Assembly: GCF_003583365.1 (NCBI RefSeq)
Contig: NZ_QXED01000001.1
Span: forward strand, 682,001-746,000
Reading direction: 5' to 3'
Length of the DNA: 64,000 nucleotides
Origin: Fibrisoma montanum
GTDB lineage: Bacteria; Bacteroidota; Bacteroidia; Cytophagales; Spirosomataceae
Shown: positions 34,027-59,130 of the stretch, piece after piece
Layout: every line of letters starts with the position of its first letter
Position numbering within the stretch: the first letter of the stretch is position 1
Translations under genes and position numbers: made by a program
Notes under the pieces: model-generated
Databases searched by the model: none
What the model saw: only the letters and a program-made list of their open reading frames with translations
Told to the model about the DNA's origin: nothing

Positions 34027-34128
34027 AAGAGAAAGGAGAAAAGGGTGGAAAGGGAAGAGGGAACAAAGGAGAGAAAATTAGTAGTTGCGAATTCCTTCCT
34101 CCTTTCCTCCCTCCTGCCTTTCTCCTTC
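34027..34128. repeat. Intergenic word-repeat element A (GA-rich/CT-rich arms, period 7)
   Basis: Purine arm 34027-34077 (words such as AAGAGAA, AGGAGAA, AAGGGTG, GAAAGGG) and pyrimidine arm 34091-34128, with a 13-base mixed spacer. The arms are approximately complementary. On the minus strand the CT-rich arm runs directly into the ATG of the radical SAM gene at 34026, and the other arm abuts the accD stop. Confidence 0.65.
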
Positions 34129-34971
34129 TTACTGCAACATCTTGAACAAGCTCGACAGCTTGTCTTTCAGGTCTTTACGATCAACGATGAAGTCGAGAAA
34201 ACCATGTTCGAGCACAAACTCTGCACTCTGGAATCCTTTGGGCAGGTCCGTACCAATGGTTTCGCGAATGACACGCGGACCGGCAAAACCAATCAGAGCG
34301 CCGGGTTCAGCAATGTTAAAATCACCGAGCATAGCATACGAAGCCGTTACGCCCCCCGTTGTAGGATCAGTCAGCAGTGAAACATACGGCAATCCAGCCT
34401 CCGACAGTAATGCCAGCTTGGCCGATGTTTTAGCCATCTGCATCAACGAGAAACCAGCCTCCATCATCCGGGCTCCCCCCGACCGTGAAATCATCAGGAA
34501 CGGCGTCTTATTTTGTAACGCATGGTCGATAGCACGGGCAATCTTCTCGCCCACCACCGATCCCATTGAGCCACCGATGAAGCCAAAGTCCATGCAGGCA
34601 ATCGTCACCGTTATGTCGTTCATGGGGCCGTATGCCGTGCGAACCGCGTCTTTCAGACCGGTTTTATTGATGGTCGTCCGCAGCCGATCCGGGTAAGGCT
34701 TGGTATCGGTAAACTTCAGCGGATCCGCCGACGTCATCGTTGCATCCAGCTCAACGAACTGGTTTTCGTCGAACAGGATGCTGAAATAAGCATCGGAACC
34801 AATTTTCTCGTGGTAGTTACAGTGTACGCAGGTATAGGCATTCAGCTTATGCTCCCGCGTATGCATGATTTTCTTACAGTTTGGACATTGGTACCACAAC
34901 CCATCGGGAGCTTCCCGCTTCATTTCGGTCGGGGTCTGAATACCCTTATCTTTTCGGACGAACCAAGACAT
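34129..34971 (-). CDS. accD: Acetyl-CoA carboxylase carboxyltransferase subunit beta
   Basis: 280 residues. With AccA it transfers CO2 from carboxybiotin to acetyl-CoA, giving malonyl-CoA for fatty acids. The N-terminal zinc ribbon is complete (CPNCKK, then CVHC, residues about 29-51). The carboxyltransferase core shows [32 protein letters not shown] with the oxyanion glycines, and [16 protein letters not shown]. Length is normal. accA is not nearby. Element B lies immediately before the ATG. Confidence 0.96.
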
Positions 34972-35040
34972 TTGCCAGTTTTCAGTTTGTGGTTTACAGG
35001 TTACGGTTCACTGACCGGATCTGTAAATGACCGGTAAAGA
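34972..35040. repeat. Intergenic word-repeat element B (CAGTTTACGGTT type, period 7)
   Basis: Degenerate 7-base words (TGCCAGT, TTTCAGT, TTGTGGT, TTACAGG, TTACGGT, TCACTGA) run from 34973, with a shorter arm at about 35011-35036 that is a rough reverse complement. It starts one base from the accD ATG on the minus strand. Words overlap those of element J. Confidence 0.5.
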
Positions 35041-35064
35041 TACTAAGAAAAAACTGTCGGGTGG

Positions 35065-35763
35065 TCACAGCGCAAGATAGTAACGTCGGCGAGCCGGCTC
35101 GTAGCGTTCAATGGCGTAGCGCAGAGCGGTTCGGGGGAGCTGCCGAATGTGATCGTGCAGAAACTCATCGAGGGCGTCGGGGTTACGTTTGCCTACCTCG
35201 CGCAGCATCCAGCCAGTTGCCTTATGGATCAGGTCATGCGTATGGCCAAGCAGCCGTTCTGCAAGCGCAAACGTATCCGCAAACTGCCCGTTCCGGATAA
35301 ACGCCAGGGTGGCTACCATCGCTATCCGCTGGCTCCAGAGGTGGTCTTCACAAACCAGATCATACAGCACTGATCGCTCCTGGGTAAACAACGTTTCTCC
35401 AACAATGGCCGGGCACGACGAATCGACCAGGTCCCAGTTGTTAACAAACAGACGATTAGCCAGGTAGGCGTCCAGAATTTGTTGCTGTTGTACGTGCCTG
35501 GCCCGCCGTGTCTGGTTGACCCAGATCAGTAATCCGACCATTCGGCACTCGTGGAAAGGGTCCTGAACCAGCTTTTCGGTTTCCTCGATGGGCAGCGCAA
35601 CGTACTGCCGGGCCAGCGCGTGTTGTTGGGGCATCGACAGACCCAGAAACTGGTCTCCGGCGCCGTATTCTCCGGGTCTTGTTTTAAAATACCGGGCTAC
35701 AAACGACGCCCGTTCGGGCTGTTCCAGCGCCAGCAGCGCTTCCTTTACCTGATCGGCAGTCAT
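35065..35763 (-). CDS. DNA alkylation repair protein (AlkD-like HEAT-repeat glycosylase)
   Basis: 232 residues from the ATG at 35763 (MTADQVKEALLAL); a longer frame to 35796 would read into repeat element C. The protein is all-helical with ALK/HEAT repeats. Family motifs are KTRPGEYGAGDQFLG near the N-terminus, FHECRMVGLLIWV, NNWDLVDSSCPAIVG (with the WD that contacts flipped DNA) and HDLIHKATGWMLREVGKRN. It removes positively charged alkylpurines such as 3- and 7-methyl bases. It follows ftsZ in the same direction. Confidence 0.9.
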   Translation of the reverse strand: MTADQVKEALLALEQPERASFVARYFKTRPGEYGAGDQFLGLSMPQQHALARQYVALPIEETEKLVQDPFHECRMVGLLIWVNQTRRARHVQQQQILDAYLANRLFVNNWDLVDSSCPAIVGETLFTQERSVLYDLVCEDHLWSQRIAMVATLAFIRNGQFADTFALAERLLGHTHDLIHKATGWMLREVGKRNPDALDEFLHDHIRQLPRTALRYAIERYEPARRRYYLAL

Positions 35764-35840
35764 GGGGATTGGCAAAGGGCGTGGGGCTAAGGGCACAGGA
35801 ACTGTCGATCCCCTGCCCTTAGCCCCACGCCCAGGATCTT
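35764..35840. repeat. Intergenic word-repeat element C (GGGC type, period 7) with a 19-bp perfect stem
   Basis: Left arm words AAAGGGC, GTGGGGC, TAAGGGC; right arm CCTGCCC, TTAGCCC, CACGCCC. Arms 35777-35795 and 35814-35832 pair perfectly over 19 bp with an 18-base loop. It fills the gap between the ftsZ stop (35847) and the alkD ATG (35763). No T-tract follows on the minus strand, so it is not a standard terminator. Confidence 0.75.
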
Positions 35841-35846
35841 GTTAAC

Positions 35847-37295
35847 TTAGTCGTTCAGCCGTGCCCGAATGAACTCATGTTCGGGTAGCATTGGCGTTTG
35901 ATACAGTTGGGTTTTGTTACGCAGATACGTCGGCGTGTCGAGGTCATTGCTGTTGTATTGACCTTTCACGAACGTATCAATTGTGCGTTTGATCAGGTCC
36001 GCATCGTCCGGCCGTTCATCGTCGAGCAGTTCCAGCGTATCAACATTGACCTCAGGGTTCAGCCGCTGACCGTTCGACTGGTCAGGACGAATAATGGTCT
36101 GTTCGGTGGTGTATCCGGTTTCCCAGCGCACACTCTCACTCTGTGGACTAACCGCCACCGGCGTTGGCGCTACGGGCTCCGGCTCCACCTCTACCAGTTC
36201 CGGCTGCGCATCGTCCATGTCGAGACTGCTTTCAACTGGCTCGGTTTCCAGTTCATCCTCCACCGCTTCGTCTTCCTGTTCCTCGGCGTCAATCGGCAGA
36301 CCCGTCGACAGCGTTTCGCCCAGATTATTGGTTGTTTCGAAACCAGCCGCGATGATGGTCACCCGAAGTTTTTTGCCTAGTTCCTTGTCGGTAATGGCTC
36401 CAAACTTGAACATACGGGCTTCGGTACCGATTTTGTTAACGATATACTCCGAAATGAGCGTTTGCTCATCGAGCAGCATATCGTGTTCCGGGCTGGATGC
36501 AATCGTGAGCAGCACCCGCTTGGCCCCCCGGATATCTCGGTCGTTGAGCAGCGGTGAGTTTAGCGCGGCTTCAATGGCCAGCAGCGCCCGATCCTCCCCG
36601 TCGGCCTCGGCCGATCCCATCACCGACTGTCCGGCTTTATCAAGCACCTTCTTTACGTCGGCAAAGTCAGCGTTGATATCGCCCTGGGTAGTGATGATTT
36701 CGGCAATACTTTTTACTGCGTTCGCCAGCACGTTGTCGGCGTGGGCATAAGCCTCTTTCCACCGAAGTTTGCCGTGCAGCTCGGCCAGTTTATCGTTCAG
36801 CACGACCAGCACCGTATCACAGCTCTTTTTGAGCTTTTCGATACCGCGCATAGCCTGTTCTTTCTTGTCGGTACCTTCGTACTTGTAGGGAGCCGTTACG
36901 ACAGCCACCGTCAGCAACCCCATTTCACGGGCTACCTCGGCCACCACCGGAGCCGCCCCGGTTCCCGTACCGCCCCCCATCCCGGCCGTGATGAACACCA
37001 TCTTGACCGGGGGTGCCAGCAGATGCCGGATTTCCTCGATGCTCGCCCGGGCTGCCTTTTCGCCTTCGTCTGCATCAGTACCAGCCCCCAACCCATCGCC
37101 TAGCTGCAGTTTGGTTGGTACCGGGTTACTCGTAAGCGCCTGGCGATCAGTGTTACAGACAGCAAAATTAACGTCCTGCACACCCATTTTAAACATGTGC
37201 TTAACCGCATTGCCCCCTGCGCCCCCTACACCAATTACCTTGATGATCGTTGGATTATCATCCGGTATTTCAAATCTATATCCCTGACTATGCAT
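35847..37295 (-). CDS. ftsZ: Cell division GTPase FtsZ
   Basis: 482 residues from the ATG at 37295 (MHSQGYRFEIP). It polymerises into the cytokinetic ring at midcell. The tubulin signature GGGTGTG is at 107-113, with VIGVGGAGGNAV at 20-31 and the T7-loop region NADFADVKKVLDKAG. The globular domain ends near residue 320. A long acidic linker (about 335-400, EDELETEPVESSLDMDD) leads to the C-terminal peptide DLDTPTYLRNKTQLY, which binds FtsA. It is the last dcw gene and follows ftsA by about 90 bases. Confidence 0.97.
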   Translation of the reverse strand: MHSQGYRFEIPDDNPTIIKVIGVGGAGGNAVKHMFKMGVQDVNFAVCNTDRQALTSNPVPTKLQLGDGLGAGTDADEGEKAARASIEEIRHLLAPPVKMVFITAGMGGGTGTGAAPVVAEVAREMGLLTVAVVTAPYKYEGTDKKEQAMRGIEKLKKSCDTVLVVLNDKLAELHGKLRWKEAYAHADNVLANAVKSIAEIITTQGDINADFADVKKVLDKAGQSVMGSAEADGEDRALLAIEAALNSPLLNDRDIRGAKRVLLTIASSPEHDMLLDEQTLISEYIVNKIGTEARMFKFGAITDKELGKKLRVTIIAAGFETTNNLGETLSTGLPIDAEEQEDEAVEDELETEPVESSLDMDDAQPELVEVEPEPVAPTPVAVSPQSESVRWETGYTTEQTIIRPDQSNGQRLNPEVNVDTLELLDDERPDDADLIKRTIDTFVKGQYNSNDLDTPTYLRNKTQLYQTPMLPEHEFIRARLND

Positions 37296-37384
37296 AATGT
37301 CTTGGGTGGAATCTTCTTTTTTATGTCTAGAATCTGCCTGATACACGTAACCGGCTGTCAGGCCGGTTCATACGGTGCGAATCA

Positions 37385-38782
37385 TCAATAGGTGTCGGTT
37401 TCACTGCCACGAATGGGCCGGACTGCTTTCTTGAGCCAGGCCAGTAGCCCATTGCTTTCAGGTTCTTTCTCAGGCGCTTTCTCTCGTTCACGCTCCCGTT
37501 CCCGTGTGGCGGTCGGCGCCGGTGGGCTGTACGCAGGCCGCACAGGCGTGGGATCTTCGTTATAGACCGAGCGTCCTGGATCGCTGATGAATGATATGCG
37601 GTTATCGATGGTTTTGTAGCCGGCCCACACCAGGCCAACGGCCGTTGCGTAGGCTGGATCGCCCACCAGATCGGCGCGGGGGTTGGGCTCCAGGTGTTCG
37701 GGATAGCCAACCCGTACTTCTTCCATTCCCGTTACGCGCTGGAATATCTGTTCCACGCCCGGAATCAGCGCCGACCCACCCGTCAGGACGATACCGCCGA
37801 GCAGTTTTCCGTCGTAGCCCGACCGGATGATTTCGGCCTGAACCAGAGAGGCAATCTCGCGCAGACGATCCTCGATGATGACCGCTACGTTTTTTAACAG
37901 TACATCTTTCGGCTTGCGGTTGCTCAGGCCGGGTACCGCCACCACCTCGTTGAGTTTGTACTCCGTGGGGTTGGCATTTCCAAACTTCCGCTTCAACTGC
38001 TCGGCCTGCTGCGGCAGTACTTTGCAGCCACTCTGGATGTCGGCCGTAACGCTGTTGCCCGCCCAGGGGAACACCGCTACGTGGCGCAGTACGTTCCGGT
38101 GATAGATAGCCATTTCGGTTGTGCCTCCGCCGATATCGACGAGCGCCACACCGGCATATTTTTCTTCGTCAGTCAGTACGGCCAGCCCCGACGCCAGTGC
38201 CGAGAGCATCATGGTATCCTGCATCAGGTTATTGCGCGAGATGCATTTCCGTACGTTGCGGGCAGCATTCGCCTGAGCGACGATTAACTGAAAATCGGCA
38301 CCCAGCTTAACCCCGTTACGGCCCACAGGCTGTTGCACGTTGGTTTCTCCATCGACAACAAAGTCCATCGGCAGCGCGTGGATAATCTCTTTGTCGGCCG
38401 GGATAGTGGTACGGTACATATCGCTCAGCAGATGGTCGATATCTTCCATCTGTACCTCATCGCCCGAGGAACTGCGGGTGATGCTGCCGCTCGACTTAAC
38501 CGACGTTACGTGCGAGCCGCTGAAGCTGACGTTAACGAGCTGAATGTTGAGATTCGATTGGTTGGAAGCCTCCCGAACGGCCCGCCGAATGGCTTCGACC
38601 GTATTATTCACGTTGACGACGGACCCTTTGGCGACCCCGTCGGCCAGAAATGTTTCGCCTACGCCCAATACTTCGAGCGTTTCGTGGTCTTTATGACGTA
38701 AAACACGGCCTGCCACAGCGCATACTTTCGTGCTGCCAATGTCAAGCCCCACCACTATCTTATCATCAATGCCTGTCGTCAT
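37385..38782 (-). CDS. ftsA: Cell division protein FtsA
   Basis: 465 residues from the ATG at 38782, which overlaps the ftsQ stop by 4 bases (ATGA); a GTG at 38788 is the alternative. It is an actin-like ATPase that anchors FtsZ to the membrane and recruits later division proteins. Motifs: KIVVGLDIGSTKVCAVAG (phosphate 1), LVDIGGGTTEMAIY (phosphate 2), GIVLTGGSALIPGV (adenosine). The 1C domain lies about 85-165. A charged ERERERE linker leads to the amphipathic C-terminal helix GLLAWLKKAVRPIRG, the membrane target sequence. Confidence 0.96.
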   Translation of the reverse strand: MTTGIDDKIVVGLDIGSTKVCAVAGRVLRHKDHETLEVLGVGETFLADGVAKGSVVNVNNTVEAIRRAVREASNQSNLNIQLVNVSFSGSHVTSVKSSGSITRSSSGDEVQMEDIDHLLSDMYRTTIPADKEIIHALPMDFVVDGETNVQQPVGRNGVKLGADFQLIVAQANAARNVRKCISRNNLMQDTMMLSALASGLAVLTDEEKYAGVALVDIGGGTTEMAIYHRNVLRHVAVFPWAGNSVTADIQSGCKVLPQQAEQLKRKFGNANPTEYKLNEVVAVPGLSNRKPKDVLLKNVAVIIEDRLREIASLVQAEIIRSGYDGKLLGGIVLTGGSALIPGVEQIFQRVTGMEEVRVGYPEHLEPNPRADLVGDPAYATAVGLVWAGYKTIDNRISFISDPGRSVYNEDPTPVRPAYSPPAPTATREREREREKAPEKEPESNGLLAWLKKAVRPIRGSETDTY

Positions 38783-39549: not shown

Positions 39550-39586
39550 CTGGAAATAAGCTATCTGAGCATACAAATATTTTTAT

Positions 39587-40987: not shown

Positions 40988-41074
40988 AAGTGTGAGGGAG
41001 GAGAGGAGGAAAGGGAGGAAGGAGGAAAGCGAATACATAACCCTTCTCCTTTTCTCCTATCCTCCCTTTCCTCC
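40988..41074. repeat. Intergenic word-repeat element D (GA-rich/CT-rich arms, period 7)
   Basis: Purine arm 40989-41029 (words GTGAGGG, AGGAGAG, GAGGAAA, GGGAGGA, AGGAGGA) and pyrimidine arm 41043-41074. About 25 positions pair with few mismatches across a mixed loop. It fills the whole gap between the murG stop and the murC ATG. It shares the GGAGGAAAGGGAGGA vocabulary with element A. Confidence 0.7.
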
Positions 41075-42166
41075 TTATTTTTTTAAGTTGATCACTTCTT
41101 CGGCAATCTCCCGGGCGGCATTGGGCCTGGCCAATGTCCGGATCTGGGTACTTAACTGTGTCCGTCTGGCAGCATCGTTGAGTAGGCTCAACGTACTCGT
41201 TACCAACTCGTTGCGGGCAACCTGATCCCGAACCAGCAAAGCCGCATTACGCTCTACAAGGCTCATCGCGTTTTTGGTCTGATGATCTTCCGATGCCGCC
41301 GGAAACGGTACCAGAATGGCCGGTCGCCCGACCAGACACAGTTCCGATACCGACAACGCGCCGGCGCGAGACACCACGACGCTGGCCACGGCATAGGCTT
41401 TATCCATGTCATAGATGAAATCGTAGGCTTTCACAAGGGGCGAGTTCACGGCAGCAACGGCGGCCCGCGCCCGTTCGATGAACGCCGGGCCTGTCTGCCA
41501 GACGACCTGCACCCCTGCATCGACAAACCGGCGCAGGGCGGGCTCCATGCTTTCGTTCAGCGTACGGGCCCCCTGGCTTCCACCAATGACCAGCACCGTC
41601 GGGCGATTACCTTGCAGATCGAAAAGCGTCAGGCCGGCGTTTAACTGCTGATCGGCAAACTGAATGTCCTTCCGAACCGGATTACCCGTCATCCGGATTT
41701 TTTCGGCGGGAAAGAACGCTTCCATACCCGGATACGCCACGCAGATTCGCTCCGCCCAGCGGGCCAGTACTTTGTTGGTCAGGCCGGCGTACGAATTCTG
41801 CTCCTGAATCAGGGTCGGAATGCCTTTGAGCGATGCCGCCAGCAGCAGCGGCCCACTGGCGTAGCCACCCACACCAACGGCTACGTCGGGGCGGAAGTCG
41901 CGTACAATCTGCTGCGCCCTGATCAGGCTCCGGCCAAGTTTCAGGGGAAAAGCCAGATTATCCAGTGTCAACTCCCGCTTGATGCCGACCACCGGCAACC
42001 CAACGATCGAGTAGCCCGCGCGGGGCACTTTCTCCATCTCCATTTTACCCTCGGCTCCCACGAACAAAATTGTCGTGGTTGGGTCCATCGCTTTCAGTTC
42101 GTTGGCAATGGCTATGGCCGGGTAGATGTGTCCGCCGGTTCCGCCCCCGCTAATAATTACATTCAT
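41075..42166 (-). CDS. murG: Undecaprenyldiphospho-muramoylpentapeptide beta-N-acetylglucosaminyltransferase
   Basis: 363 residues, normal length. It adds GlcNAc to lipid I, making lipid II at the inner face of the membrane. GT-B fold with the family G-loops ISGGGTGGHIYPA (6-18) and VGVGGYASGP, the UDP-GlcNAc loop VIGGSQGARTLNE, and SRAGALSVSELCLVGRPAILVPFP near the C-terminus. It lies between ftsW and murC, flanked on both sides by word-repeat elements (E and D). Confidence 0.97.
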   Translation of the reverse strand: MNVIISGGGTGGHIYPAIAIANELKAMDPTTTILFVGAEGKMEMEKVPRAGYSIVGLPVVGIKRELTLDNLAFPLKLGRSLIRAQQIVRDFRPDVAVGVGGYASGPLLLAASLKGIPTLIQEQNSYAGLTNKVLARWAERICVAYPGMEAFFPAEKIRMTGNPVRKDIQFADQQLNAGLTLFDLQGNRPTVLVIGGSQGARTLNESMEPALRRFVDAGVQVVWQTGPAFIERARAAVAAVNSPLVKAYDFIYDMDKAYAVASVVVSRAGALSVSELCLVGRPAILVPFPAASEDHQTKNAMSLVERNAALLVRDQVARNELVTSTLSLLNDAARRTQLSTQIRTLARPNAAREIAEEVINLKK

Positions 42167-42258
42167 TCGGTTTGTGGTTAGTAGTGCGTAGTTTGTGGCT
42201 GGCTGATGCGCGGGTACCCTTGCTCAACCCACCTACGTACTACACACTACGACCTAAC
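42167..42258. repeat. Intergenic word-repeat element E (GGTTAGT/ACTACAC type, period 7)
   Basis: Left arm, starting at the murG ATG: GGTTTGT, GGTTAGT, AGTGCGT, AGTTTGT, GGCTGGC. Right arm: CCTACGT, ACTACAC, ACTACGA, CCTAACT. The arms are approximate reverse complements. It fills the gap between the ftsW stop (42259) and the murG ATG (42166). Confidence 0.7.
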
Positions 42259-43386
42259 TTAAATCTTACTTTCATCGGCCTCTTCCCGACTGACGCTCAG
42301 CACAATACCAATAGCCAGACCGGTGAAGATCAGCGACGTACCTCCCATACTCAGTAATGGCAGCGGCTGACCCGTAACCGGGGCCAGACCAACCGCCACG
42401 CAGATACTGGCAAAGGCCTGAAACACAATACTGAACGTTAGTCCGGCCGACAGCAGACCGCCAAAGGGCCGGGTTGTTTTCTGAATGGCTTTCATGCCAC
42501 GCCACAAAAACCAGAGGTACGCCATAATAACCGGCAGCCCACCAAACAGCAGCCCGTATTCCTCAACGATGATGGCATAAATGAAATCGGAGAACGGGTT
42601 GGGCAGCGTATTTCGCTGGTGACTGTTGCCGGGCCCCTGCCCCGTCAGGCCGCCGTTGGCCAGGGCGATATACGACTGCTCCACCTGATATACGATGGTG
42701 TCGGAATCCATGAAATTCTTTATCCGATTGGTAGCCGTACCGAATCGCTGTCCCAGCACCAGCGCAAAACCGCCGACGACGACGCAGAACACGACCATGC
42801 TCGTGAGGTAACGTACCGGAACCCGACCGATATACATCAGCAGGAAGCAGGTGGCCCCAAGCAGGAGCGCCGTTGACGTATTGGAGAGGATAATCAGGGC
42901 GCAGATCACTCCGATCCAGACAATCAGGTTGACCAGTACGCTTGGATCGTTCATAAACCGCTGCCGTTTGGCCAGCATAGCCGCCAGGTTGGAAATCAGG
43001 GCCAGTTTGGCCAGATCGGAGGGCTGAAACGTCTGGTTGATGATTGGGATGGTCACCCAGCGCGACGCGTCGTTCAGCGTAGAGCCTTTAAAGAAGGCCC
43101 ACAACAGCAGCGGAATCGATAGCCACAGCCCAAACTTCGACAGCCGGGCGTAGTAAATGTAGTTGATCTTGTGGGCGAAGTACGTGCAAACCAGCCCCAG
43201 CATCAGCAGGGAACCGTGCTTGAGCAGAAAAACTTCCGTGTTGCCGTCGAGTTCGCGAAACGCTTTGGTTCCCGTTGCGCTGTATACGACCAGCACGCTC
43301 ATGATAGACAGATACAACACAATCCACCAGATTTGCCGGTCACCTTTAAGGTTGTTTCGTATCCAGTCGCGAATAGAAAAGGTCAT
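42259..43386 (-). CDS. ftsW: Peptidoglycan glycosyltransferase FtsW (SEDS family)
   Basis: 375 residues with about ten membrane segments. With its partner penicillin-binding protein (FtsI) it polymerises lipid II into septal glycan. SEDS features seen: WIVLYLSIMSVLVVYSATG at the N-terminus, LNDASRWVTIP with FQPSDLAKLA (extracellular loop and catalytic Asp region), QVEQSYIALANGGLTGQGPGNS, and the C-terminal LPLLSMGGTSLIFTGLAIG. Length and order (murD-ftsW-murG) are typical of dcw clusters. Confidence 0.95.
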   Translation of the reverse strand: MTFSIRDWIRNNLKGDRQIWWIVLYLSIMSVLVVYSATGTKAFRELDGNTEVFLLKHGSLLMLGLVCTYFAHKINYIYYARLSKFGLWLSIPLLLWAFFKGSTLNDASRWVTIPIINQTFQPSDLAKLALISNLAAMLAKRQRFMNDPSVLVNLIVWIGVICALIILSNTSTALLLGATCFLLMYIGRVPVRYLTSMVVFCVVVGGFALVLGQRFGTATNRIKNFMDSDTIVYQVEQSYIALANGGLTGQGPGNSHQRNTLPNPFSDFIYAIIVEEYGLLFGGLPVIMAYLWFLWRGMKAIQKTTRPFGGLLSAGLTFSIVFQAFASICVAVGLAPVTGQPLPLLSMGGTSLIFTGLAIGIVLSVSREEADESKI

Positions 43387-48679: not shown

Positions 48680-48681
48680 TC

Positions 48682-50682: not shown

Positions 50683-50711
50683 TTCTGGGTTTGACAGTTA
50701 AAAAGTTTGTT

Positions 50712-50778: not shown

Positions 50779-50798
50779 CTGGACGATCAGCAGAGCGG

Positions 50799-50859
50799 TA
50801 AGGCATGGGGCGAAGGATAAGCAAATACCCCAGGCTCCAGGCGCTTTGCCCATTGCCAA
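50799..50859. repeat. Intergenic word-repeat element K (GGCATGGGGC type, period about 7)
   Basis: On the minus strand the words are GGCAATG, GGCAAAG, CGCCTGG, AGCCTGG, GGTATTT. The arm GGCATGGGGCGAAGG pairs imperfectly with the reverse complement of the segment abutting the rpsI stop. The vocabulary is like that of element C. Unlike most, it lies after a stop (rpsI) and about 115 bases before the next start. Confidence 0.45.
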
Positions 50860-51246
50860 TTAACGTTTCGAGAACTGGAACCGACGACGTGCTTTCCGGC
50901 GACCGTATTTCTTACGCTCTACCATGCGGGAGTCGCGCGTCAGGAAGCCTTCTTTCTTCAGAGCCGGACGGAACTCAGCGTTCACTTCAACCAGCGCACG
51001 GGCGATCGCCATACGCGTTGCTTCGGCCTGACCAGCTACCCCACCGCCCCGAACGTTGACTTTCACGTCATACGCTCCGGCACCGTTAACAGTTGCGAAC
51101 GGTTGGTTCAGAATAATTTGCAGGACTTCGGTGGGGAAATATTGCTTGTAATCTTTCCCGTTCACCTGGATGGCACCGCTGCCGGCCGACAGATACACGC
51201 GGCTGATGGCAGTTTTACGGCGACCAATGGTATTAACTCGTTCCAT
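50860..51246 (-). CDS. rpsI: 30S ribosomal protein S9
   Basis: 128 residues, standard length. It starts MERVNTIGRRKTAISRVYL, contains GGGVAGQAEATRMAIARAL and ends with the conserved basic tail DSRMVERKKYGRRKARRRFQFSKR, whose last residues contact tRNA in the P site. It follows rplM by 19 bases in the usual L13-S9 operon. Confidence 0.98.
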   Translation of the reverse strand: MERVNTIGRRKTAISRVYLSAGSGAIQVNGKDYKQYFPTEVLQIILNQPFATVNGAGAYDVKVNVRGGGVAGQAEATRMAIARALVEVNAEFRPALKKEGFLTRDSRMVERKKYGRRKARRRFQFSKR

Positions 51247-51265
51247 GTGTTAGTTCGCGCCTGAC

Positions 51266-51709
51266 TTAGAATTTGATTTCTTTCGGTTGCTGAGCAGCAT
51301 GAGGGTGCTCGTTGCCTACATATACGTGCAGGTTGGTAAACAACCGCCGACCCAACCGGTTTTTGGGCAGCATACCCCGTACGGCATGCTCCAGAACGCG
51401 CTCAGGGCGCTTCTCCAGCAACAACCGGGGGGTTGCAAAACGTTGACCGCCGGGATAACCCGTGTGGCGGACGTAAATCTTGTCGGTCATCTTCGAGCCG
51501 GTCAGGCGCACCTTTTCGGCGTTGATGACAATTACGTTGTCTCCGCAATCGACGTGCGGGGTGAAGTTGGTTTTGTGTTTGCCGCGAATCAGGCGCGCAA
51601 TCTGGCTGGCCAGCCGACCCAGCACTTGCCCCTGAGCGTCAACCACAACCCATTCCTTCTGCACGGTCTCGCTATTGGCAGAGATGGTTTTGTAACTGAG
51701 CGTATTCAC
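51266..51709 (-). CDS. rplM: 50S ribosomal protein L13 (GTG start)
   Basis: 147 residues. The N-terminus [20 protein letters not shown] is the conserved Bacteroidota L13 start, and its first codon is GTG at 51709; no in-frame ATG precedes it, so a GTG start is well supported. Core motifs: [74 protein letters not shown]. It is the first gene of the rplM-rpsI-rpsB-tsf group. Confidence 0.97.
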
Positions 51710-51760
51710 TGTTATGTAGTACTAATTGGTTGATTTCAAACGATTTGCTTACGCAAAAAA

Positions 51761-51791
51761 ACTCCCGTCCGAAAACGGGAGTGCAAATATA
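51761..51791 (-). promoter_or_regulatory. Overlapping terminator and promoter between mraY and rplM
   Basis: A perfect 8-bp stem ACTCCCGT/ACGGGAGT (51761-51768 and 51775-51782) followed on the minus strand by eight T is an intrinsic terminator for mraY. Directly before it is TATATTTG (51791-51784), a -7 box with a possible TTG 20 bases further up. A transcript from this box would begin inside the hairpin and carry part of it at its 5' end ahead of rplM. Confidence 0.5.
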
Positions 51792-51819
51792 CGGTCTAAA
51801 AATCTGAAAGACAAGCTAG

Positions 51820-51873
51820 TGCTTGGTTTTCCGTTGTCAGTTTGCAGTTTTCCGCCCGTGAAAACGCAGGGGA
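51820..51873. repeat. Intergenic word-repeat element F (CAGTTTGCAGTTTTC type, period 7)
   Basis: Words CTTGGTT, TTCCGTT, GTCAGTT, TGCAGTT, TTCCGCC at 51822-51856, lying just past the mraY stop. Only a short second arm is visible (GTTTTC/GAAAAC). It differs from most copies by lying about 110 bases upstream of the next start (rplM). Confidence 0.5.
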
Positions 51874-53082: not shown

Positions 53083-53180
53083 GGGTGAATGACTGAATGA
53101 GTGAATGCGCGAATGAGTGAATGGGTACAGCGACTCCAATTTTGCTACTCATCCACTAATTAGCTCATTCGCTAATTGAG
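53083..53180. repeat. Intergenic word-repeat element G (GTGAATGA/CTCATTCG type, period 8)
   Basis: Left arm, starting at the mraY ATG: five 8-base words (GGTGAATG, ACTGAATG, AGTGAATG, CGCGAATG, AGTGAATG). Right arm: TACTCATC, CACTAATT, AGCTCATT, CGCTAATT, GAGCAAAG, a rough reverse complement. It fills the mraY-murE gap and is the most regular member of the class. Confidence 0.75.
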
Positions 53181-53185
53181 CAAAG

Positions 53186-54670
53186 TTACTGATTTCCGGC
53201 ATTGGCGAAAGCCTCGCGCAATACCTCACGATCATCAAAATCATATTTTACACCGTTGATCTCCTGGTAGGTTTCGTGGCCTTTGCCGGCCACCAGAATA
53301 ATATCGTGCGGACGAGCCAGCAAAACAGCCTGCCGAATGGCATCGCGCCGGTCTTCGATCGTCAGAGTTTTCTTAAAATCGACCGGAGGGATCCCCGTCT
53401 GCATCTGCTCCAGAATAGCCATAGGGTCTTCGTTGCGGGGGTTGTCGGAAGTCAGGATAACGCGGTCGCTCAATTTGCAGGCGATTTCGGCCATAATCGG
53501 GCGTTTGGCCGCATCGCGGTTACCTCCGCAACCCACTACGGTTATGACCCGCGGACGCTGCCCGGCTTCGTCGCCGTGGCGTAGACCGTCGATGGTTTCC
53601 AGTACGTTCTGCAATGCGTCGGGCGTATGGGCGTAATCGACAATGCCCACAACATTGGTCTCTGATATAACCTGCTCGAAGCGACCCGGCGGAGGGGTTA
53701 ACCCCGAGAGCTGGGTCAGTACGTCTTCGGCTTCTTCGCCCAGCAGTACGGCAGCTCCGTAAACAGCCAGCAGATTGTAGGCGTTAAACCGCCCGATGAG
53801 CTTAAACCATACCTCACGGTCGTCGATCTGCATGTTCAGCCCGAACAGACTATCGGCCAGAACCTTCCCTTTGAACGTAGCCAGCGTCTGGAGCGAGTAG
53901 CTTTCCTTCCGGGCAACGGTATTCTGCAGCATCACCAGGCCGCGCTTGTCGTCGACGTTGGTCAGGGCGAAGGCCGTTAATGGAAGCAGGTCGAAAAAGC
54001 CTTTTTTGGCTTTGATGTAATTATCGAAGGTACCGTGGAAGTCGAGGTGATCGTGGGTGATGTTGGTAAAAATCCCCCCGGCAAACGTCAGTCCGGCGAT
54101 ACGTTCCTGCACCACGGCATGTGAGCTAACCTCCATGAACACGTGGGTACAGCCCGTTTCGAGCATCCGGATCAGCAGTTCGTTGATAGTCACTACATCC
54201 GGCGTGGTGTGGGTAGTTGGAATGACCTGATCGTCGATCTGGTTCTGTACCGTAGACAACAACCCGCAGCGATAACCCAGGCTGCGAAAGAGCCGGAACA
54301 GGAGCGTTGCCACGGAGGTTTTACCGTTCGTACCCGTTACGCCCACGAGTTTAAGCCTTTGCGACGGCTGTTCGTAAAAGTTAGCGGCAATCAGGCCGAG
54401 CGCCCGGGCCGAATGCTGCACCTGGATATAAGCAACCTGATCGGCCCTGTTGGCGGGCAGTTCTTCGCACAGGATCGCCGTGGCTCCCTGCTCAATGGCC
54501 GTGTCAATGAAGGTATGCCCATCGGCGACGGTACCCCGAACTGCGACGAACAGACTGCCGGGACCCACCCGACGCGAGTCGATGGTCAGGTTGGTGATTT
54601 CGGCATCCATGCTCCCGGACGTGGCCAGCAGCGAAACTTTATAGAGGAGGTCTTTGAGTGACTTCGGCAT
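53186..54670 (-). CDS. murE: UDP-N-acetylmuramoyl-L-alanyl-D-glutamate--2,6-diaminopimelate ligase
   Basis: 494 residues from the ATG at 54670; the preceding TTG is not needed. It adds the third residue of the peptide stem. ATP loop GVTGTNGKTSVATLLF (about 110-125), TTHTTPDVVTINELL, VDYAHTPDALQNVL and VVGCGGNRDAAKRP are present. The motif TSDNPRNEDP carries the Asp-Asn-Pro-Arg that binds meso-diaminopimelate, so the wall is predicted to be DAP-type. It follows ftsI by 46 bases. Confidence 0.97.
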   Translation of the reverse strand: MPKSLKDLLYKVSLLATSGSMDAEITNLTIDSRRVGPGSLFVAVRGTVADGHTFIDTAIEQGATAILCEELPANRADQVAYIQVQHSARALGLIAANFYEQPSQRLKLVGVTGTNGKTSVATLLFRLFRSLGYRCGLLSTVQNQIDDQVIPTTHTTPDVVTINELLIRMLETGCTHVFMEVSSHAVVQERIAGLTFAGGIFTNITHDHLDFHGTFDNYIKAKKGFFDLLPLTAFALTNVDDKRGLVMLQNTVARKESYSLQTLATFKGKVLADSLFGLNMQIDDREVWFKLIGRFNAYNLLAVYGAAVLLGEEAEDVLTQLSGLTPPPGRFEQVISETNVVGIVDYAHTPDALQNVLETIDGLRHGDEAGQRPRVITVVGCGGNRDAAKRPIMAEIACKLSDRVILTSDNPRNEDPMAILEQMQTGIPPVDFKKTLTIEDRRDAIRQAVLLARPHDIILVAGKGHETYQEINGVKYDFDDREVLREAFANAGNQ

Positions 54671-54716
54671 CAATCAGTTTATGACGGGTTGGCCGGCAAA
54701 GTTAGCAGCCTCCCCG

Positions 54717-56822
54717 TTAATTCAACGTCAGAGTAATCGGTGTGTTTGCTACCAGCTGCGTACCCGGCTCCAGCGATTGGTCTTTCACTTTACCGTGCCC
54801 TTCTACGGCGACCCGCAGGCCCCGGTTTTCGAGCAGGAACAACGCATCCCGGAGCGTCAGACCCCGAACGTCCGGTATGCGGTCGGGCCGGGTTGGGCGG
54901 GATTTCCAGCGGCCAGCGGGCGTAGCTTCAACCCAGCCCTCGGTTGATGGCTCACTTTTCAGGTTCAGGGTGGCGCTGATCGTATGCAGATCGTCGGAGT
55001 AGCCGGCCAGTAAGCCATCCGCTGGCCGGGGCTGCTGACTGCCCGGACGAATGGGCGCGTGCATGCGGATGTCATACGCTACGATGCGGTCGGCCACCTC
55101 TCTGAACACCGGCGCAGCTACGGCGCCGGCATAAAGTAAGTCAATGTTGTCGCCCTGGGGCGAATCCACTACGGTGATACAACTATATTTCGGGTTGTCG
55201 GCGGGGAAATAGCCAATGAACGATGTATAATATTTACCCACCTTGTAGCGGCCGTTGATGATCTTCTGAGCCGTACCGGTCTTCCCCGCAATGGCGTAGT
55301 ACGGATTGTCAATGTGCCGGGCGGTGCCCTGCTTCACGACACCCCGCAGCAGTTCCTTTGCTTTGCGGGCCGTTTCGCGGGAGCAGATCGGCTCGGGCGC
55401 TACATAAGGTTTAAACTCCTCAACAACGTCTTCCGCCTTCTTGATCTGCTTGACAATCATGGGTCTTACCCACTTACCGTCGTTTGCCACCGCGTTGTAG
55501 AAAGTCAGCATCTGCAACGGGGTGATCTGCATCTCGTAGCCGTAGGACATCGACGTGAGCGACACCTTACTCCAGCCTTTCATATCCGGATTCCGCACTA
55601 CCGGCGTGGCCTCGCCTTTCATGTGAATACCCGTTGGCTGGGTAAGCCGGAACCGACGCAGGTACTGGCAATATAAATCCGGTCGTTTATAGAAGTAGCT
55701 CCGCATGAGCAGGTGCGTGCCTACGTTCGACGACTTTTCGAATACCTGCCGGGCCGTAATGGTACCGGCTCCGCCCCGTTTGGCGTCGTGAATACCCAGC
55801 CCATTGTACGTCATTGACCCACCGCCGGTGGCTACCATCTGGTTCAGCGAAATGGCTTTCTCCTCCATCAACGCCATCATCGTGGCGAGTTTGAACGTTG
55901 AGCCGGGGTCCGTACGTCCGGCCAGCGCGTGGTTGAAGTTTTCAACATAGCCATCGTCCTTGCGGGTCAGGTTGGCCATCGCCCTGATTTCGCCCGTGGC
56001 CACTTCCATGACGATGACGCACCCTTTGGCCGCGTTGTATTTCTCCAGCGCCGAACGTAGTGCGGTTTCGGCCATATCCTGAAAATTAACGTCGATGGTC
56101 GTGTATAGATCCATGCCCGACTCAGGCTTCATGTCCGGCCCATCGTTGACCGGTTTGCGGATGCCACCCGACAGGATTTCGACCAGGCCCACCGCGTTTT
56201 TTCCGGCCAGTTGCTGCTGGAAACTGGCTTCCAAGCCGATCAGCCCACGACCCGTTTTGGCGTCCAGATCGCCGATGGTCCGTTTGGCCATGTTGCCGAA
56301 CGGATGGTACCGTTCGTAATGGGGGCGCAATACCCCTCCACGGGCCGCTACCTTCGCCGAAGACCGGAAAAACGGCCATTTGATCATCATCTGTCGCTCC
56401 TGGAACGTAACCCGCCGACGGTTCAGCAATACGTACCGGCGCTTGCGGGCCCGGGCATCGCGGACCAGATCGGTGTAATCGGTAGCCGATCGGTCGCGGA
56501 AGATGCGCGAGAGCAAGAGCCCCAGCGAATCGACTTTCTTGGCAAAATAGTCGGGTTTGGCAACGGTCGGATCCAGACCGACTACGTAGGTTGGCAGCGA
56601 CGTTGCCAGCAGGCTGCCGTCGCTGGCGTAGATGTTGCCCCGCATCGCCCGGATTGTATCGCGCTGGATGATGGCAGCCGCTACCCGATCCCGCCAGAAC
56701 TTACCCTTGAACGTCTGAAAATACTGTACGTACACCAACCGGCCGATCACGCAGGCCGCCAGCACAATCACGATGTAGGTGACGTGGCTTGCCCGCTGAA
56801 TGATGTCCTGCTTAATGTTCAT
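54717..56822 (-). CDS. ftsI: Division-specific penicillin-binding protein (FtsI/PBP3 type) with C-terminal PASTA domain
   Basis: 701 residues from the ATG at 56822, overlapping the ftsL stop by 11 bases. A septal transpeptidase that cross-links glycan made by FtsW. One N-terminal membrane helix (VTYIVIVLAACVIGRLVYV), a dimerisation/pedestal domain (about 50-250), then the transpeptidase: SxxK in DPGSTFKLATM, SxN in KSSNVGTHL, and KTG in YAIAGKTGTAQK. The last 55 residues (RIPDVRGLTLRDALFLLENRGLRV, ending LTLN) form one PASTA domain, common in FtsI of Bacteroidota and absent from E. coli. Confidence 0.96.
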   Translation of the reverse strand: MNIKQDIIQRASHVTYIVIVLAACVIGRLVYVQYFQTFKGKFWRDRVAAAIIQRDTIRAMRGNIYASDGSLLATSLPTYVVGLDPTVAKPDYFAKKVDSLGLLLSRIFRDRSATDYTDLVRDARARKRRYVLLNRRRVTFQERQMMIKWPFFRSSAKVAARGGVLRPHYERYHPFGNMAKRTIGDLDAKTGRGLIGLEASFQQQLAGKNAVGLVEILSGGIRKPVNDGPDMKPESGMDLYTTIDVNFQDMAETALRSALEKYNAAKGCVIVMEVATGEIRAMANLTRKDDGYVENFNHALAGRTDPGSTFKLATMMALMEEKAISLNQMVATGGGSMTYNGLGIHDAKRGGAGTITARQVFEKSSNVGTHLLMRSYFYKRPDLYCQYLRRFRLTQPTGIHMKGEATPVVRNPDMKGWSKVSLTSMSYGYEMQITPLQMLTFYNAVANDGKWVRPMIVKQIKKAEDVVEEFKPYVAPEPICSRETARKAKELLRGVVKQGTARHIDNPYYAIAGKTGTAQKIINGRYKVGKYYTSFIGYFPADNPKYSCITVVDSPQGDNIDLLYAGAVAAPVFREVADRIVAYDIRMHAPIRPGSQQPRPADGLLAGYSDDLHTISATLNLKSEPSTEGWVEATPAGRWKSRPTRPDRIPDVRGLTLRDALFLLENRGLRVAVEGHGKVKDQSLEPGTQLVANTPITLTLN

Positions 56823-57213
56823 TGAGATTGACAACGATTTTGTGTGGAGGAGTTAAACTATCGGTCAGGCCAAGCCCGGATACCCGCTTACTAAGTTCTG
56901 ATTGTTTGCCACTTTTCATAAAATCGGCCTCCAGCGTAGTTGCCTGCGCCCGAAGTTCATCGACCTGCGTTTTGCTCCGCTGAATCCGACGTACCAGCCG
57001 CTCGGCATTGTGGTTCAGGCCAATATACACGATCAGCAGCAGCGTAACCCAGAGAATCCGGTCAATATGGCGGATGGGCCAGGCATTGTCTTCGCCAAAA
57101 AGCCGGTCGAGCCCGATGACGTCGTTGATCCAGATCGTCAGGCGGTTTTTGCGCTTCTGTTTTTTCTGTCTGGCAACAATGCGTTCGGGTTGCCGAAATG
57201 TATTCTTAACCAT
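56812..57213 (-). CDS. ftsL: FtsL-like division protein
   Basis: 133 residues. A basic cytoplasmic tail (RIVARQKKQKRKNRLTIW) leads to one membrane helix (about 52-66, ILWVTLLLIVYIGL), then a coiled coil (about 67-105, VRRIQRSKTQVDELRAQATTLEADF) and a short tail. This is the layout of Bacteroidota FtsL, a scaffold that links FtsQ/FtsB-like proteins to FtsW-FtsI. The call rests on structure and position before ftsI, since FtsL sequences are poorly conserved. rsmH and mraZ, which usually precede it, are missing. Confidence 0.85.
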   Translation of the reverse strand: MVKNTFRQPERIVARQKKQKRKNRLTIWINDVIGLDRLFGEDNAWPIRHIDRILWVTLLLIVYIGLNHNAERLVRRIQRSKTQVDELRAQATTLEADFMKSGKQSELSKRVSGLGLTDSLTPPHKIVVNLNEH

Positions 57214-57598
57214 GATAAAGCTTTTAATGCTAACGGTGTTCCTTGTACGGCAATCGCAGTGTACTCATCGTCAACAACGTACCGGCAACGTCAGTGACCC
57301 CTTCAGCTTGTTCGTGCGTACCGGTTGGCTGCCCTTCCTAAAAAATCATCGATAAAGCGGGAGTCAAGGTAATCAAACCATGTTTGGCCAGCGACTCGTG
57401 GTCCTCTCAACACGGGTTTTCAACCCAAAATTGTGGCATCAACCTCAATAACGTACCTGGCAACACCCGTCCTTTTCCGCGTACACTTTATCAGCACAAA
57501 GTAACAAAAACCAATACAACTCTGTAAGGCCGTTAAAAAGCAAAGCGATGGCATTTCGCTTAAAATACCATCGCTTTCGTACAAAATCAGCGTCGGTG
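57214..57598. other. Gene-less spacer where rsmH and mraZ would be expected
   Basis: About 385 bases between ftsL and the M28 peptidase gene. It contains the peptidase terminator (57542-57577) and presumably the ftsL promoter, but no clear TAnnTTTG box, no GTGGG-type MraZ boxes and no remnant of rsmH or mraZ could be recognised. Short open frames here lack family features. Confidence 0.5.
57542..57577 (-). terminator. Intrinsic terminator of the M28 peptidase gene
   Basis: 10-bp perfect stem AAAGCGATGG/CCATCGCTTT (57542-57551 and 57568-57577) with a 16-base loop, 21 bases after the peptidase stop. On the minus strand it continues TTTGCTTTTTAA. Confidence 0.65.
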
Positions 57599-59077
57599 TT
57601 ATTCCTTCCAGCGCCACTCGTTGGCAATCTGAAGCGGAGTCCGCAGGCCCTGTGCTACGAGGTAATCCCGCGTTTTGGAATCGTTCAGTCGGCGGGTCGG
57701 GATATCGTCGGCGTCGGCAAGGGCGTAAAGCAGCATGGATGTATAGCGAACCGTATTTTTCAACTGCTCTTCGTTGACTAGGTTGATCCGGTCGCAGTTG
57801 GCGTGGTAGCAGTCCAGCACCTCCTTCGACAGGTGGCCATTCATCCCGACTACGGGAACGCCTTCGAGCATGAACGGCTGATGGTCGCTGTGCAGGCCGG
57901 CCTGGTTCATCATCTGGTTGGCGAAGGCCGGCTCAGTCCGTTTCATAGCCTCCCCTACATCGTTCAGAAACGGCAGCATGTCATTGCGGCCGAATGCATT
58001 CAGCCCTGTAGGATCATTGGTCATATCGAGGTTCATCATGCACCGGACCTTGTCCAGCTGGCCGCTTTCCTTCAACGCCTGCACCATGCTTTTCGACCCC
58101 AGCAGTCCCTGTTCTTCACCCATGAACAGGACAAACTCGATGGTTCGCTTTGGTTTGATTTTCAGCGCCCGGAACGTACGGGCAATGTCCATGACGGCAA
58201 ACGACCCGATGCCATTATCGATGGCCCCGGTTGCCAGATCCCACGAATCGAGGTGACCACCGATAATGATTTTCTCGTCGGGGTATGTAGCTCCGGGCAG
58301 CGTAGCGACTACGTTGCGGGCGCGGATTTTACGGCTTTTGTTGCTCATGGCGATCATGGCGTGCAGCGGACTCCGCTCTTCCTGCATCCACTGCCGCAGC
58401 TGCAGCCCGCTCTCCAGCGAAATGCAGACCGACGGAATAGGAATCAGTTTGCCCGTAACGGAGGCCGTTCCGGTGAGCAGCACATTACCCGGCACCAGAT
58501 TTACCATGATCACGCCTTTCGCACCGTGCTGAATAGCCAGGGCTGTTTTCTCAGACCGATGCAGGTTCCGGGCACCCTGCGCCGGAGCGGCTATACCGAT
58601 GTTGACCAGCGCAATCTTACCCTTCAGCTTGTGTTTAACGGCCGCAAAGTCGCCTTCCAGTCCATTGCCGACATCAACGATTTCACCCTGTATGTGGGCT
58701 TCGATCGGCGAATGGGCCAGCGCAACGACCGGGACCTCCCGGAAGTTATCGCTCTTGCTGGGCACGATCGATAGGGTTACGGTATCGCGCATCCAGGCTT
58801 CCACTTCGAACGGCTCGTACCGCAATTCTTTAAAACCGTACGATTTAAGCAGATTATACGCATACGCTTCGGCCCGGGTTCCGTTGGGGCTGCCGGTCAG
58901 CCGGTGACCAACCACTCCAGAAGCATCGACCAGGGTTTCGTAGGCCCGGCTCCGCTGCATCACTTCATTGTTGATACGGGAAAACACTTTCTCGAGGGAG
59001 GGCTTCTGAAGGCTGAAGGCCATTAAGGTACCGGCAGTGCCAGCGCAAATCAGAACAAACCGCACCGCATGGACCAT
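57599..59077 (-). CDS. Secreted M28-family zinc aminopeptidase with PA domain
   Basis: 492 residues from the ATG at 59077, which gives a clear signal peptide (VRFVLICAGTAGTLMAFS). Starting at 59149 would add an Arg/Gly/Pro-rich tail encoded by repeat element H. A PA insert (about 120-230) precedes the M28 catalytic domain. Zinc ligands and catalytic residues: His and Asp in IIGGHLDSWDLATGAIDNGIG, the Glu pair in FMGEEQGLLGS, Asp in MNLDMTNDP and His in DCYHANCDRIN. It removes N-terminal residues from peptides in the periplasm or outside the cell. Confidence 0.92.
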   Translation of the reverse strand: MVHAVRFVLICAGTAGTLMAFSLQKPSLEKVFSRINNEVMQRSRAYETLVDASGVVGHRLTGSPNGTRAEAYAYNLLKSYGFKELRYEPFEVEAWMRDTVTLSIVPSKSDNFREVPVVALAHSPIEAHIQGEIVDVGNGLEGDFAAVKHKLKGKIALVNIGIAAPAQGARNLHRSEKTALAIQHGAKGVIMVNLVPGNVLLTGTASVTGKLIPIPSVCISLESGLQLRQWMQEERSPLHAMIAMSNKSRKIRARNVVATLPGATYPDEKIIIGGHLDSWDLATGAIDNGIGSFAVMDIARTFRALKIKPKRTIEFVLFMGEEQGLLGSKSMVQALKESGQLDKVRCMMNLDMTNDPTGLNAFGRNDMLPFLNDVGEAMKRTEPAFANQMMNQAGLHSDHQPFMLEGVPVVGMNGHLSKEVLDCYHANCDRINLVNEEQLKNTVRYTSMLLYALADADDIPTRRLNDSKTRDYLVAQGLRTPLQIANEWRWKE

Positions 59078-59130
59078 GCCCGCCGGTCGCCCGGCAGACC
59101 TGACCGGCTGCCGGGCAGACCGGCAATATG
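59078..59130. repeat. Word-repeat element H (GCCGGTC/GCCCGGC type, period 7)
   Basis: Words GCCGGTC, GCCCGGC, AGACCTG, ACCGGCT, GCCGGGC, AGACCGG between 59081 and 59123, self-complementary within the run so that it can fold back. It starts next to the preferred ATG of the M28 peptidase. It is open in the reading frame of that gene, which is why the gene could be called 24 codons too long. Confidence 0.5.

What the first reader, a model, noticed from the sequence alone, without database searches (positions are those of the whole stretch)
34027..59130. A class of intergenic 7- or 8-base word-repeat hairpins, each with its own word, placed at start codons
At least eleven spacers (elements A-K: 34027, 34972, 35764, 40988, 42167, 51820, 53083, 59078, 8983, 26300, 50799) are made of degenerate words repeated every 7 or, in G, 8 bases. 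Most have a second arm that is an approximate reverse complement, giving an imperfect hairpin; C pairs perfectly over 19 bp. Unlike REP, ERIC or MITE elements there is no shared consensus: words differ between copies (GA-rich in A and D; GGGC in C and K; GGTTAGT in E; GTGAATGA in G; GTTTACGG in B and J). Heptamer repeats (STRRs) are known from heterocystous cyanobacteria, but those keep a fixed word. Nine of the eleven end within about 15 bases of a start codon, so they would be part of the mRNA leader of murC, murG, mraY, accD, alkD, xylB, an ABC transporter, an M28 peptidase and a radical SAM gene. They may be 5'-leader regulators, slippage-born hairpins, or traces of an unknown element. No function is shown.
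Basis: partly seen in the sequence, partly recalled or inferred. Interest (0 to 1): 0.85.

Follow-up and report, generated by a model that had tools for sequence, protein, structure and literature searches.

The report
Intergenic word hairpins with S23p genes
Many gaps between genes in this bacterium and its relatives hold hairpins built of repeated 7- or 8-letter words, and the same kind of arms often bracket a widespread small gene of unknown function, which suggests that both belong to one little-known class of genetic element.

Summary
In 464 kb of this Fibrisoma genome, strong hairpins between genes are about 100-fold over shuffles and 23-fold over genic sequence. Many have arms of 7-8 base words with a G-rich 5' arm. 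Words are not private to a copy: a few families recur. Relatives carry other words, or nothing, in the same spacers. Arms co-vary and loops appear inverted between related species, as template switching would give. Elements adjoin stop codons more often than start codons and also lie between convergent genes, so a general 5'-leader role is unlikely.

New: all four PF05635 genes found in the genome (S23p, '23S rRNA intervening sequence protein', related to retroelement Avd) are bracketed by such arms; so are 17 of 29 tested in other family genomes and 17 of 30 elsewhere in the phylum, against 2 of 157 control ORFs and 4 of 30 and 3 of 39 neighbouring ORFs. At one spacer, relatives have S23p with arms, a hairpin alone, or neither.

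Best reading: the hairpins are mostly ORF-less forms of S23p/IVS-like elements. Mobility and RNA processing are inferred, not shown.

The parts
34024..34130 (.). Element A, GA-rich word hairpin between accD (34129-34971, -) and a radical SAM gene (33049-34026, -)
   Evidence: hairpin score 17, MFE z -2.6; sister arms pair better, score 33; period p 0.16 and 0.049
34972..35064 (.). Element B, GTTTACGG-type words (34972-35012) between the DNA alkylation repair gene and accD; no significant hairpin
   Evidence: period p<0.0005, MFE z -0.5; nearly identical in the sister
35777..35832 (.). Element C, GGGC words, strong hairpin between ftsZ (35847-37346) and the DNA alkylation repair ORF (35065-35796)
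   Evidence: score 20, MFE z -10.7, period p 0.0065 in the first arm
40988..41080 (.). Element D, GGAGGAAA words, hairpin between murG and murC
   Evidence: score 22, MFE z -4.6; period p 0.12 and 0.063
42167..42262 (.). Element E, GTTTGTAG/GTTAGTAG words, hairpin between ftsW and murG; the spacer holds other words, or is nearly empty, in relatives
   Evidence: MFE z -5.5, period p 0.008 in the first arm
51820..51873 (.). Element F, TTTGCAG words downstream of mraY; the sister has a longer, differently worded sequence here
   Evidence: period p 0.003, MFE z 0.0, sister alignment
53083..53183 (.). Element G, octamer GTGAATGA hairpin between murE and mraY
   Evidence: score 19, period p<0.0005 in both arms, MFE z -2.1
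59078..59126 (.). Element H, GC-rich repeat and hairpin at the 5' end of the M28 peptidase ORF (57599-59149, -)
   Evidence: MFE z -6.0, period p 0.0025; near-identical in the sister without indels
8983..9034 (.). Element I, GCAAAGG words, one arm; borders a stretch of about 1.2 kb present here and absent in the sister
   Evidence: no significant period (p 0.38) or fold (z -1.0)
26300..26380 (.). Element J, GTTTACGG-type hairpin with long loop upstream of the xylB-like gene (26384-27865)
   Evidence: MFE z -2.0, period p 0.21
50795..50862 (.). Element K, GGGC-type words; weak
   Evidence: period p 0.13, MFE z 0.4

Best explanation
The hairpins are mostly ORF-less members of a Bacteroidota-wide class of intergenic elements. 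The full form is a pair of inverted arms made of 7-8 base words with an S23p gene (PF05635, four-helix bundle, the '23S rRNA intervening sequence protein') in the loop.

Shown: the hairpin class, its word periodicity, G-rich 5' arm, recurrent words, other words at the same spacer in relatives, inverted loops, and bracketing of many S23p genes by such arms.

Inferred: (1) the elements enter or arise just behind a stop codon and survive there because the transcribed hairpin harms neither gene, perhaps by RNase III cleavage as in a 23S rRNA IVS; (2) slippage changes word number, and replication template switching between the arms copies one arm onto the other and inverts loops, so the structure outlives any particular word; (3) S23p helps to spread or maintain the elements.
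For: S23p link: all 4 PF05635 genes found in the draft genome lie between inverted word arms, each of another word type (scores 23, 38, 24, 27 against shuffle maxima 19, 21, 14, 14). In 29 other family genomes, one gene each, 17 score 18 or more and 16 exceed all 100 shuffles; controls 2 of 157 small ORFs (own genome and Fibrella) and 4 of 30 neighbouring ORFs (Fisher p 1.5e-14 and 4e-4). In 30 genomes of the phylum outside the family, 17 against 3 of 39 neighbours, p 1e-5; of the 17, ten have significant arm period, lag 7 in 5 and 8 in 5; G>C in the 5' arm in 16. One spacer in 30 family genomes: S23p with arms 7, S23p without clear arms 3, ORF-less hairpin 10, short spacer 6, other 4. Words like element G's bracket one S23p gene and GA words like those of A and D another.

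Template switching: orthologous loops inverted in 13 of 111 comparisons (at 6 sites), direct in 16; compensatory pairs 34 against 15.4 permuted, maximum 26.

Other words at the same spacer.

Literature: Coxiella IVS has a 28-bp stem, an S23p ORF in the loop, heptameric repeats before its start, and RNase III cleavage (PMC4990558, passages).
Against: No element was seen to move; no target duplication was sought. Four S23p genes stand against many hairpins. 12 of 29 and 13 of 30 tested S23p genes lack arms of score 18. Other cargo was not searched for; two other ORFs of the 157 controls were bracketed too. Sharing of 12-mers between the four own S23p flanks and own ORF-less hairpins is 9, 0, 1 and 3 against a control mean of 0.36, but one control also reached 9. 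Of pairs comparable with the sister, 115 are broken on one side and 20 on both, against 656 unchanged; arms are 83% identical to the sister's, no less than other spacers (83%), so word change is not unusually fast. Many relatives have no hairpin at a given spacer. S23p genes may simply drop into older hairpins. Transcription and RNase III cleavage are untested here, and the Coxiella S23p is reported as probably not made in vivo (PMC4990558).
Confidence: 0.55

Rival explanations
1. Purely mutational hairpins: local slippage makes word arrays and template switching makes and repairs the second arm. S23p genes merely sit in, or favour, such hairpins.
For: Inverted loops and compensatory excess; copy-number differences in one arm between sisters; single-arm remnants at orthologous sites.
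Against: The same words recur at unlinked sites (12-mers shared in 12 of 1431 own pairs against 1.1 shuffled, in Fibrella 23 of 1711 against 0.2; GAGTGAATGA doublets 19 times at 10 places, 0 in the reversed control). S23p bracketing exceeds other ORFs.
Confidence: 0.3
2. Selected mRNA hairpins: bidirectional end structures that stabilise the upstream mRNA or stop transcription, with sequence free and structure conserved.
For: Adjoin the stop codon (62 of 99); more frequent between convergent than divergent genes for all long hairpins (44/184 against 16/181, p 1e-4); compensatory excess.
Against: Convergent against divergent is not significant for the periodic subset (9/184 against 5/181, p 0.41), nor co-oriented against divergent (p 0.10). 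At ftsW|murG 8 of 34 genomes have spacers of 5 bp or less, so no hairpin is needed there. Several sit inside the mur/fts gene cluster, where stopping transcription should be harmful (inference).
Confidence: 0.2
3. 5'-leader regulators at start codons.
For: 37 of 99 lie within 15 nt of a start codon.
Against: Stop codons are close more often, convergent spacers carry them, and many relatives lack them at the same genes.
Confidence: 0.06
4. REP-like elements moved by a RAYT (Y1) transposase.
For: Palindromic, intergenic, many copies; one Y1_Tnp match in the genome, 27 bits, over the family cut-off of 23.
Against: That match is far weaker than the best ones of many relatives (about 75-130 bits); the commonest 8-mer of the arms occurs in 7 of 56 own hairpins, so there is no shared consensus.
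Confidence: 0.04

Closest known systems
Intervening sequences (IVS) of 23S rRNA with S23p ORF (e.g. Coxiella burnetii, PMC4990558, passages)
   Same: Inverted arms forming a stem, S23p-family ORF in the loop, heptameric repeats next to the ORF (GACAGAT in Coxiella), described there as selfish
   Different: Here between protein genes, not in rRNA; arms are word arrays; most copies seen have no ORF; RNase III excision not shown
Heptamer repeats: TAACTGA in Beggiatoaceae, Cyanobacteria and some Bacteroidetes (PMC4679880, abstract and two sections), GGGNATC in Xanthomonas/Nostoc (PMC4692102, abstract and one section), STRR (recalled)
   Same: Seven-base period, intergenic, near start or stop codons, copy-number variation
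   Different: Those are direct repeats of one word or word type; here words vary, two inverted arms are usual, and S23p genes are linked
REP/RAYT and other repeated extragenic palindromes (recalled; search listings)
   Same: Intergenic palindromes in many copies
   Different: No shared consensus, only a weak Y1_Tnp match, arms are tandem words
Diversity-generating retroelements (Avd protein and target hairpin)
   Same: Avd resembles PF05635 (PMC10053308, passages); the DGR target hairpin of BPP-1, at the stop codon of mtd, needs stem structure but not stem sequence (PMC3240598, passages)
   Different: No RVT_1 reverse transcriptase found in the own, Fibrella or Rudanella genome; no TR/VR pair was sought

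Membership tests
23S rRNA IVS | Located in a 23S rRNA helix | tested here: not met
   Elements and the four own S23p genes lie between protein ORFs
23S rRNA IVS | Inverted arms around an S23p ORF | tested here: met
   4 of 4 own, 17 of 29 family, 17 of 30 phylum genes; met for these, not for the ORF-less copies
23S rRNA IVS | Removed by RNase III | not testable with these tools
   needs RNA
STRR / fixed heptamer repeats | One fixed word | tested here: not met
   Several word families per genome, other words at the same spacer in relatives
REP/RAYT | Shared palindromic consensus | tested here: not met
   Commonest arm 8-mer in 7 of 56 own long hairpins; apex words of own hairpins within the shuffle maximum
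REP/RAYT | RAYT transposase in the genome | tested here: inconclusive
   One Y1_Tnp match, 27 bits, over the cut-off of 23 but weak
Diversity-generating retroelement | Reverse transcriptase | tested here: not met
   No PF00078 match in 3 of 4 genomes incl. the own one; one in Fibrisoma limi; drafts, so a gap is possible
MITE | Target-site duplication and fixed terminal repeats | not tested
   -
Intrinsic terminator | GC-rich stem followed by a T run | not tested
   Shorter terminator-like hairpins (span under 55) were set apart by length only

The most novel reading that the evidence does not exclude
S23p (PF05635), an Avd-like protein of unknown function found in 157 of 198 sampled genomes of the phylum, is the factor of a reverse-transcriptase-independent class of mobile hairpins. 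With host replication it seeds and rewrites word hairpins at gene ends; many heptamer repeats seen between bacterial genes, and the IVS of 23S rRNA, are its products.
Probability: 0.22. Interest if true: 0.92.

Novelty: new variant of a known kind. Interest (0 to 1): 0.77.

Why it matters
Heptamer repeats and S23p proteins are two separate unexplained features of bacterial genomes. Linking them gives S23p genes a testable context and suggests that 23S rRNA IVS are one niche of a larger class. Inverted loops and co-varying arms also make these spacers a natural record of template switching in bacteria, and a warning that covariation there need not mean selection.

Tried and rejected
Simple lag-7 autocorrelation over the window: only weak signals, because words are degenerate. 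Pooling all hairpin arms: modest excess, diluted by terminators. RAYT and reverse transcriptase: no support. A constant apex motif: GCGTCAGC in 10 of 104 apexes of relatives, many from one orthologous Larkinella spacer, and GCGAAGC in 7 of 57 in Fibrella; nothing beyond shuffles in own apexes, so not a general core. Indels of 7 nt in elements: 9 of 95 gaps, too few to judge. Control hits L162:10980 and L171:1174: neither clearly matched the S23p set by blastx (E 0.40 and 1.4); the family scan of the first used only part of its ORF.

Limits. Gene starts come from a greedy ORF caller, not a gene finder. Own and sister hairpins are partly orthologous, so pooled counts are not independent; one search includes terminator-like hairpins; the 111 loop comparisons repeat sites, and 11 of the 13 inverted ones are Larkinella. 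The 157 control ORFs come from the own genome and Fibrella only, and were not matched for spacer type. The phylum test used the best PF05635 match of 30 of 157 positive genomes; the family test one gene in each of 30 genomes, one of which had no open frame. In one search, 17 of 30 score at least 18 and 17 of 30 exceed all 100 shuffles, 16 in common; my notebook line that all 17 exceed the shuffles is wrong. In one search some of the 10 ORF-less hairpins are not word-like (e.g. L289). One search's murG-murC start estimates are unreliable; one search serves there. Within-genus dialects rest (the Larkinella word pattern had one reversed-control match); word sharing between own and Fibrella hairpins also exceeds shuffles (18 of 3186 against 1.0), so dialects are only partial. 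Papers: PMC4679880 abstract and sections 3 and 10; PMC4692102 abstract and section 13; PMC4990558, PMC3240598, PMC10053308 passages; PMC8794818, PMC8604942 and PMC10434271 abstract and outline. Absence from print rests on the 10 paper searches of open-licence papers only.
Full report
What was checked. The window is G000:C11:682001-746000 of a 7.8 Mb draft genome in 39 contigs. Its sister G001 is Fibrisoma limi: a contig of the same length carries the same murG, 96% identical to ours; Fibrisoma is in Spirosomataceae, Bacteroidota. Gene names were tested: accD, ftsZ, ftsA, murC, murG, murD, mraY and murE pass curated cut-offs; ftsW and xylB are best matches below theirs. One by one, six spacers have significant 7/8-base period in their first or only arm and seven fold better than shuffles.

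Class in the genome. With a local hairpin score over the window plus twenty 20-kb stretches (464 kb), hairpins of score 16 or more number 67 in 79 kb of intergenic or gene-edge sequence, 14 in 385 kb of genic sequence and 3.7 in shuffled sequence (23-fold and 107-fold). The list shows a few words repeatedly: GGAGGAAA, GTTTACGG/GTTTGTAG, GTGAATGA, GCAGAGA, GGGC, beside ordinary terminators and other palindromes. The sister has 58 intergenic and 3 genic in 480 kb. Among long hairpins, arms with significant period (33 of 104 in own plus sister, 24 of 56 in Fibrella) have best lags of 7, 8 or 9 in 32 of 33 and 22 of 24. In these G exceeds C in the 5' arm in 31 of 33 and 18 of 24 (4 the other way); over all long hairpins in 34 of 56 own (17 the other way), and in genic hairpins in 30 of 72 (32 the other way). 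Words are shared between loci more than shuffles allow, also between own and Fibrella hairpins. GAGTGAATGA-type doublets occur 19 times at 10 places of the genome (0 in the reversed control); a GTTTACGG-type pattern 6 times (0 in the control); a Larkinella word pattern 5 times in each of two Larkinella genomes (one control match) and in none of four others.

Position. In co-oriented spacers the hairpin lies within 15 nt of the stop codon in 62 of 99 and of the start codon in 37 of 99; for periodic ones 31 and 21 of 38. Long hairpins lie in 44 of 184 convergent, 87 of 639 co-oriented and 16 of 181 divergent spacers (convergent against divergent p 1e-4, co-oriented against divergent p 0.10); the periodic ones in 9, 34 and 5, without significant difference.

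Evolution. At ten of the eleven spacers the sequence aligns with F. limi; F does not. Elsewhere words differ: in one spacer nearly all repeats of both arms are GTGAATGA type here and GTGAAAGA type there, in another GA-rich arms stand opposite GGGC arms, and one spacer has 102 bp here and 32 bp there. In named relatives the murD|ftsW spacer holds hairpins of AATGATG, ATGTATG, GTACAAT, GGTAAGTGGTGA, GAGTGAA or AATGAAC words, or single-arm remnants; murG|murC has ATGGTTA words in Larkinella. Occupancy is far from complete: a hairpin of score 15 or more in 14 of 34 genomes at murD|ftsW and 5 of 34 at ftsW|murG, and 8 of 34 have 5 bp or less at the latter. In 38 orthologous hairpins, compensatory pairs number 34 against 15.4 permuted (maximum 26), beside 656 unchanged, 115 broken on one side, 20 on both and 50 G-U; arms are 83% identical, like other spacers. 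In 111 comparisons of orthologous loops, 16 match directly and 13 inverted, the latter at six sites, four of them in Larkinella; in 54 further cases the second species had no hairpin. Loop inversion with arm homogenisation is what template switching between inverted repeats does (PMC8604942, abstract), and template switching can create and repair hairpins (PMC8794818, abstract).

The S23p link. One genome-wide match of the GAGTGAATGA word bracketed a small ORF that is PF05635. The genome has four PF05635 matches. All four genes lie between inverted word arms: GA-rich, GCAACCCC, TTGAATGATTGAA and GAGTGAATGA. All match TIGR02436, four helix bundle protein, and the one tested matches the solved proteins 2gsc and 2rld. 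In 29 other family genomes 17 such genes score 18 or more, against 2 of 157 control ORFs and 4 of 30 neighbours. In 30 genomes elsewhere in the phylum 17, against 3 of 39; PF05635 occurs in 157 of 198 sampled genomes there and 57 of 61 in the family. At the spacer upstream of one ABC ATPase, 30 of 61 family genomes looked at show S23p with arms (7), S23p without clear arms (3), hairpin without ORF (10), short spacer (6) and other (4). So full, ORF-less and empty forms alternate at one place.

Interpretation. In Coxiella the IVS of 23S rRNA has a 28-bp stem, an S23p ORF in the loop, heptameric repeats before it, and is cut out by RNase III (PMC4990558, passages). The intergenic elements look like the same kind of thing outside rRNA. 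I infer that a transcribed stem behind a stop codon is tolerated and perhaps processed, that replication errors keep the stem while words drift, and that S23p is the common factor. PF05635 resembles Avd of diversity-generating retroelements (PMC10053308, passages), whose target hairpin needs structure but not sequence of the stem (PMC3240598, passages); but no reverse transcriptase was found in the own genome, so a retro mechanism is not supported here.

What stays open. Movement, transcription, processing and any role of S23p are not shown. The alternative that hairpins are mutational products and S23p genes settle in them remains at about 0.3. I found no description of the S23p link in ten searches of the open-licence library, of which four named S23p, its synonyms or Avd (66, 72, 78, 82).

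Noticed in passing
L192 and L197 (own genome C28:923053 and C28:929891): Two octamer-word hairpins share a loop stretch of about 65 nt (GTCTGCAACTATC...GTAGTTTGGGGTTAGTACCCTGGATTGTG), possibly a small dispersed element nested in them.
   Followed up: no
window 9040-10320: About 1.2 kb beside element I is absent from the sister, which joins directly behind the word repeat.
   Followed up: partly
Larkinella murD|ftsW spacer (L112, L113 near 8700): Loop inverted between L. rosea and L. terrae with similar arm words.
   Followed up: yes
L170:481, L170:16081, L171:377, L172:5317 (Fibrella): Perfect or near-perfect palindromes with arms of about 72-79 nt; the first nests word arms, the others carry dispersed motifs such as TGTCATCCCGACG and CCCTTCGAC...GCTCAGGGTGACA.
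   Followed up: no
Fibrella apexes: GCTTCGC/GCGAAGC recurs at the apex of hairpins with different arm words (7 of 57), as if arms and apex were separate modules.
   Followed up: partly
window 12740-12784: A palindrome AGGATTTCCTAATATTTCC...GGAAATATTAGGAAATC between two genes, in a stretch of period 10, unlike the word hairpins.
   Followed up: no
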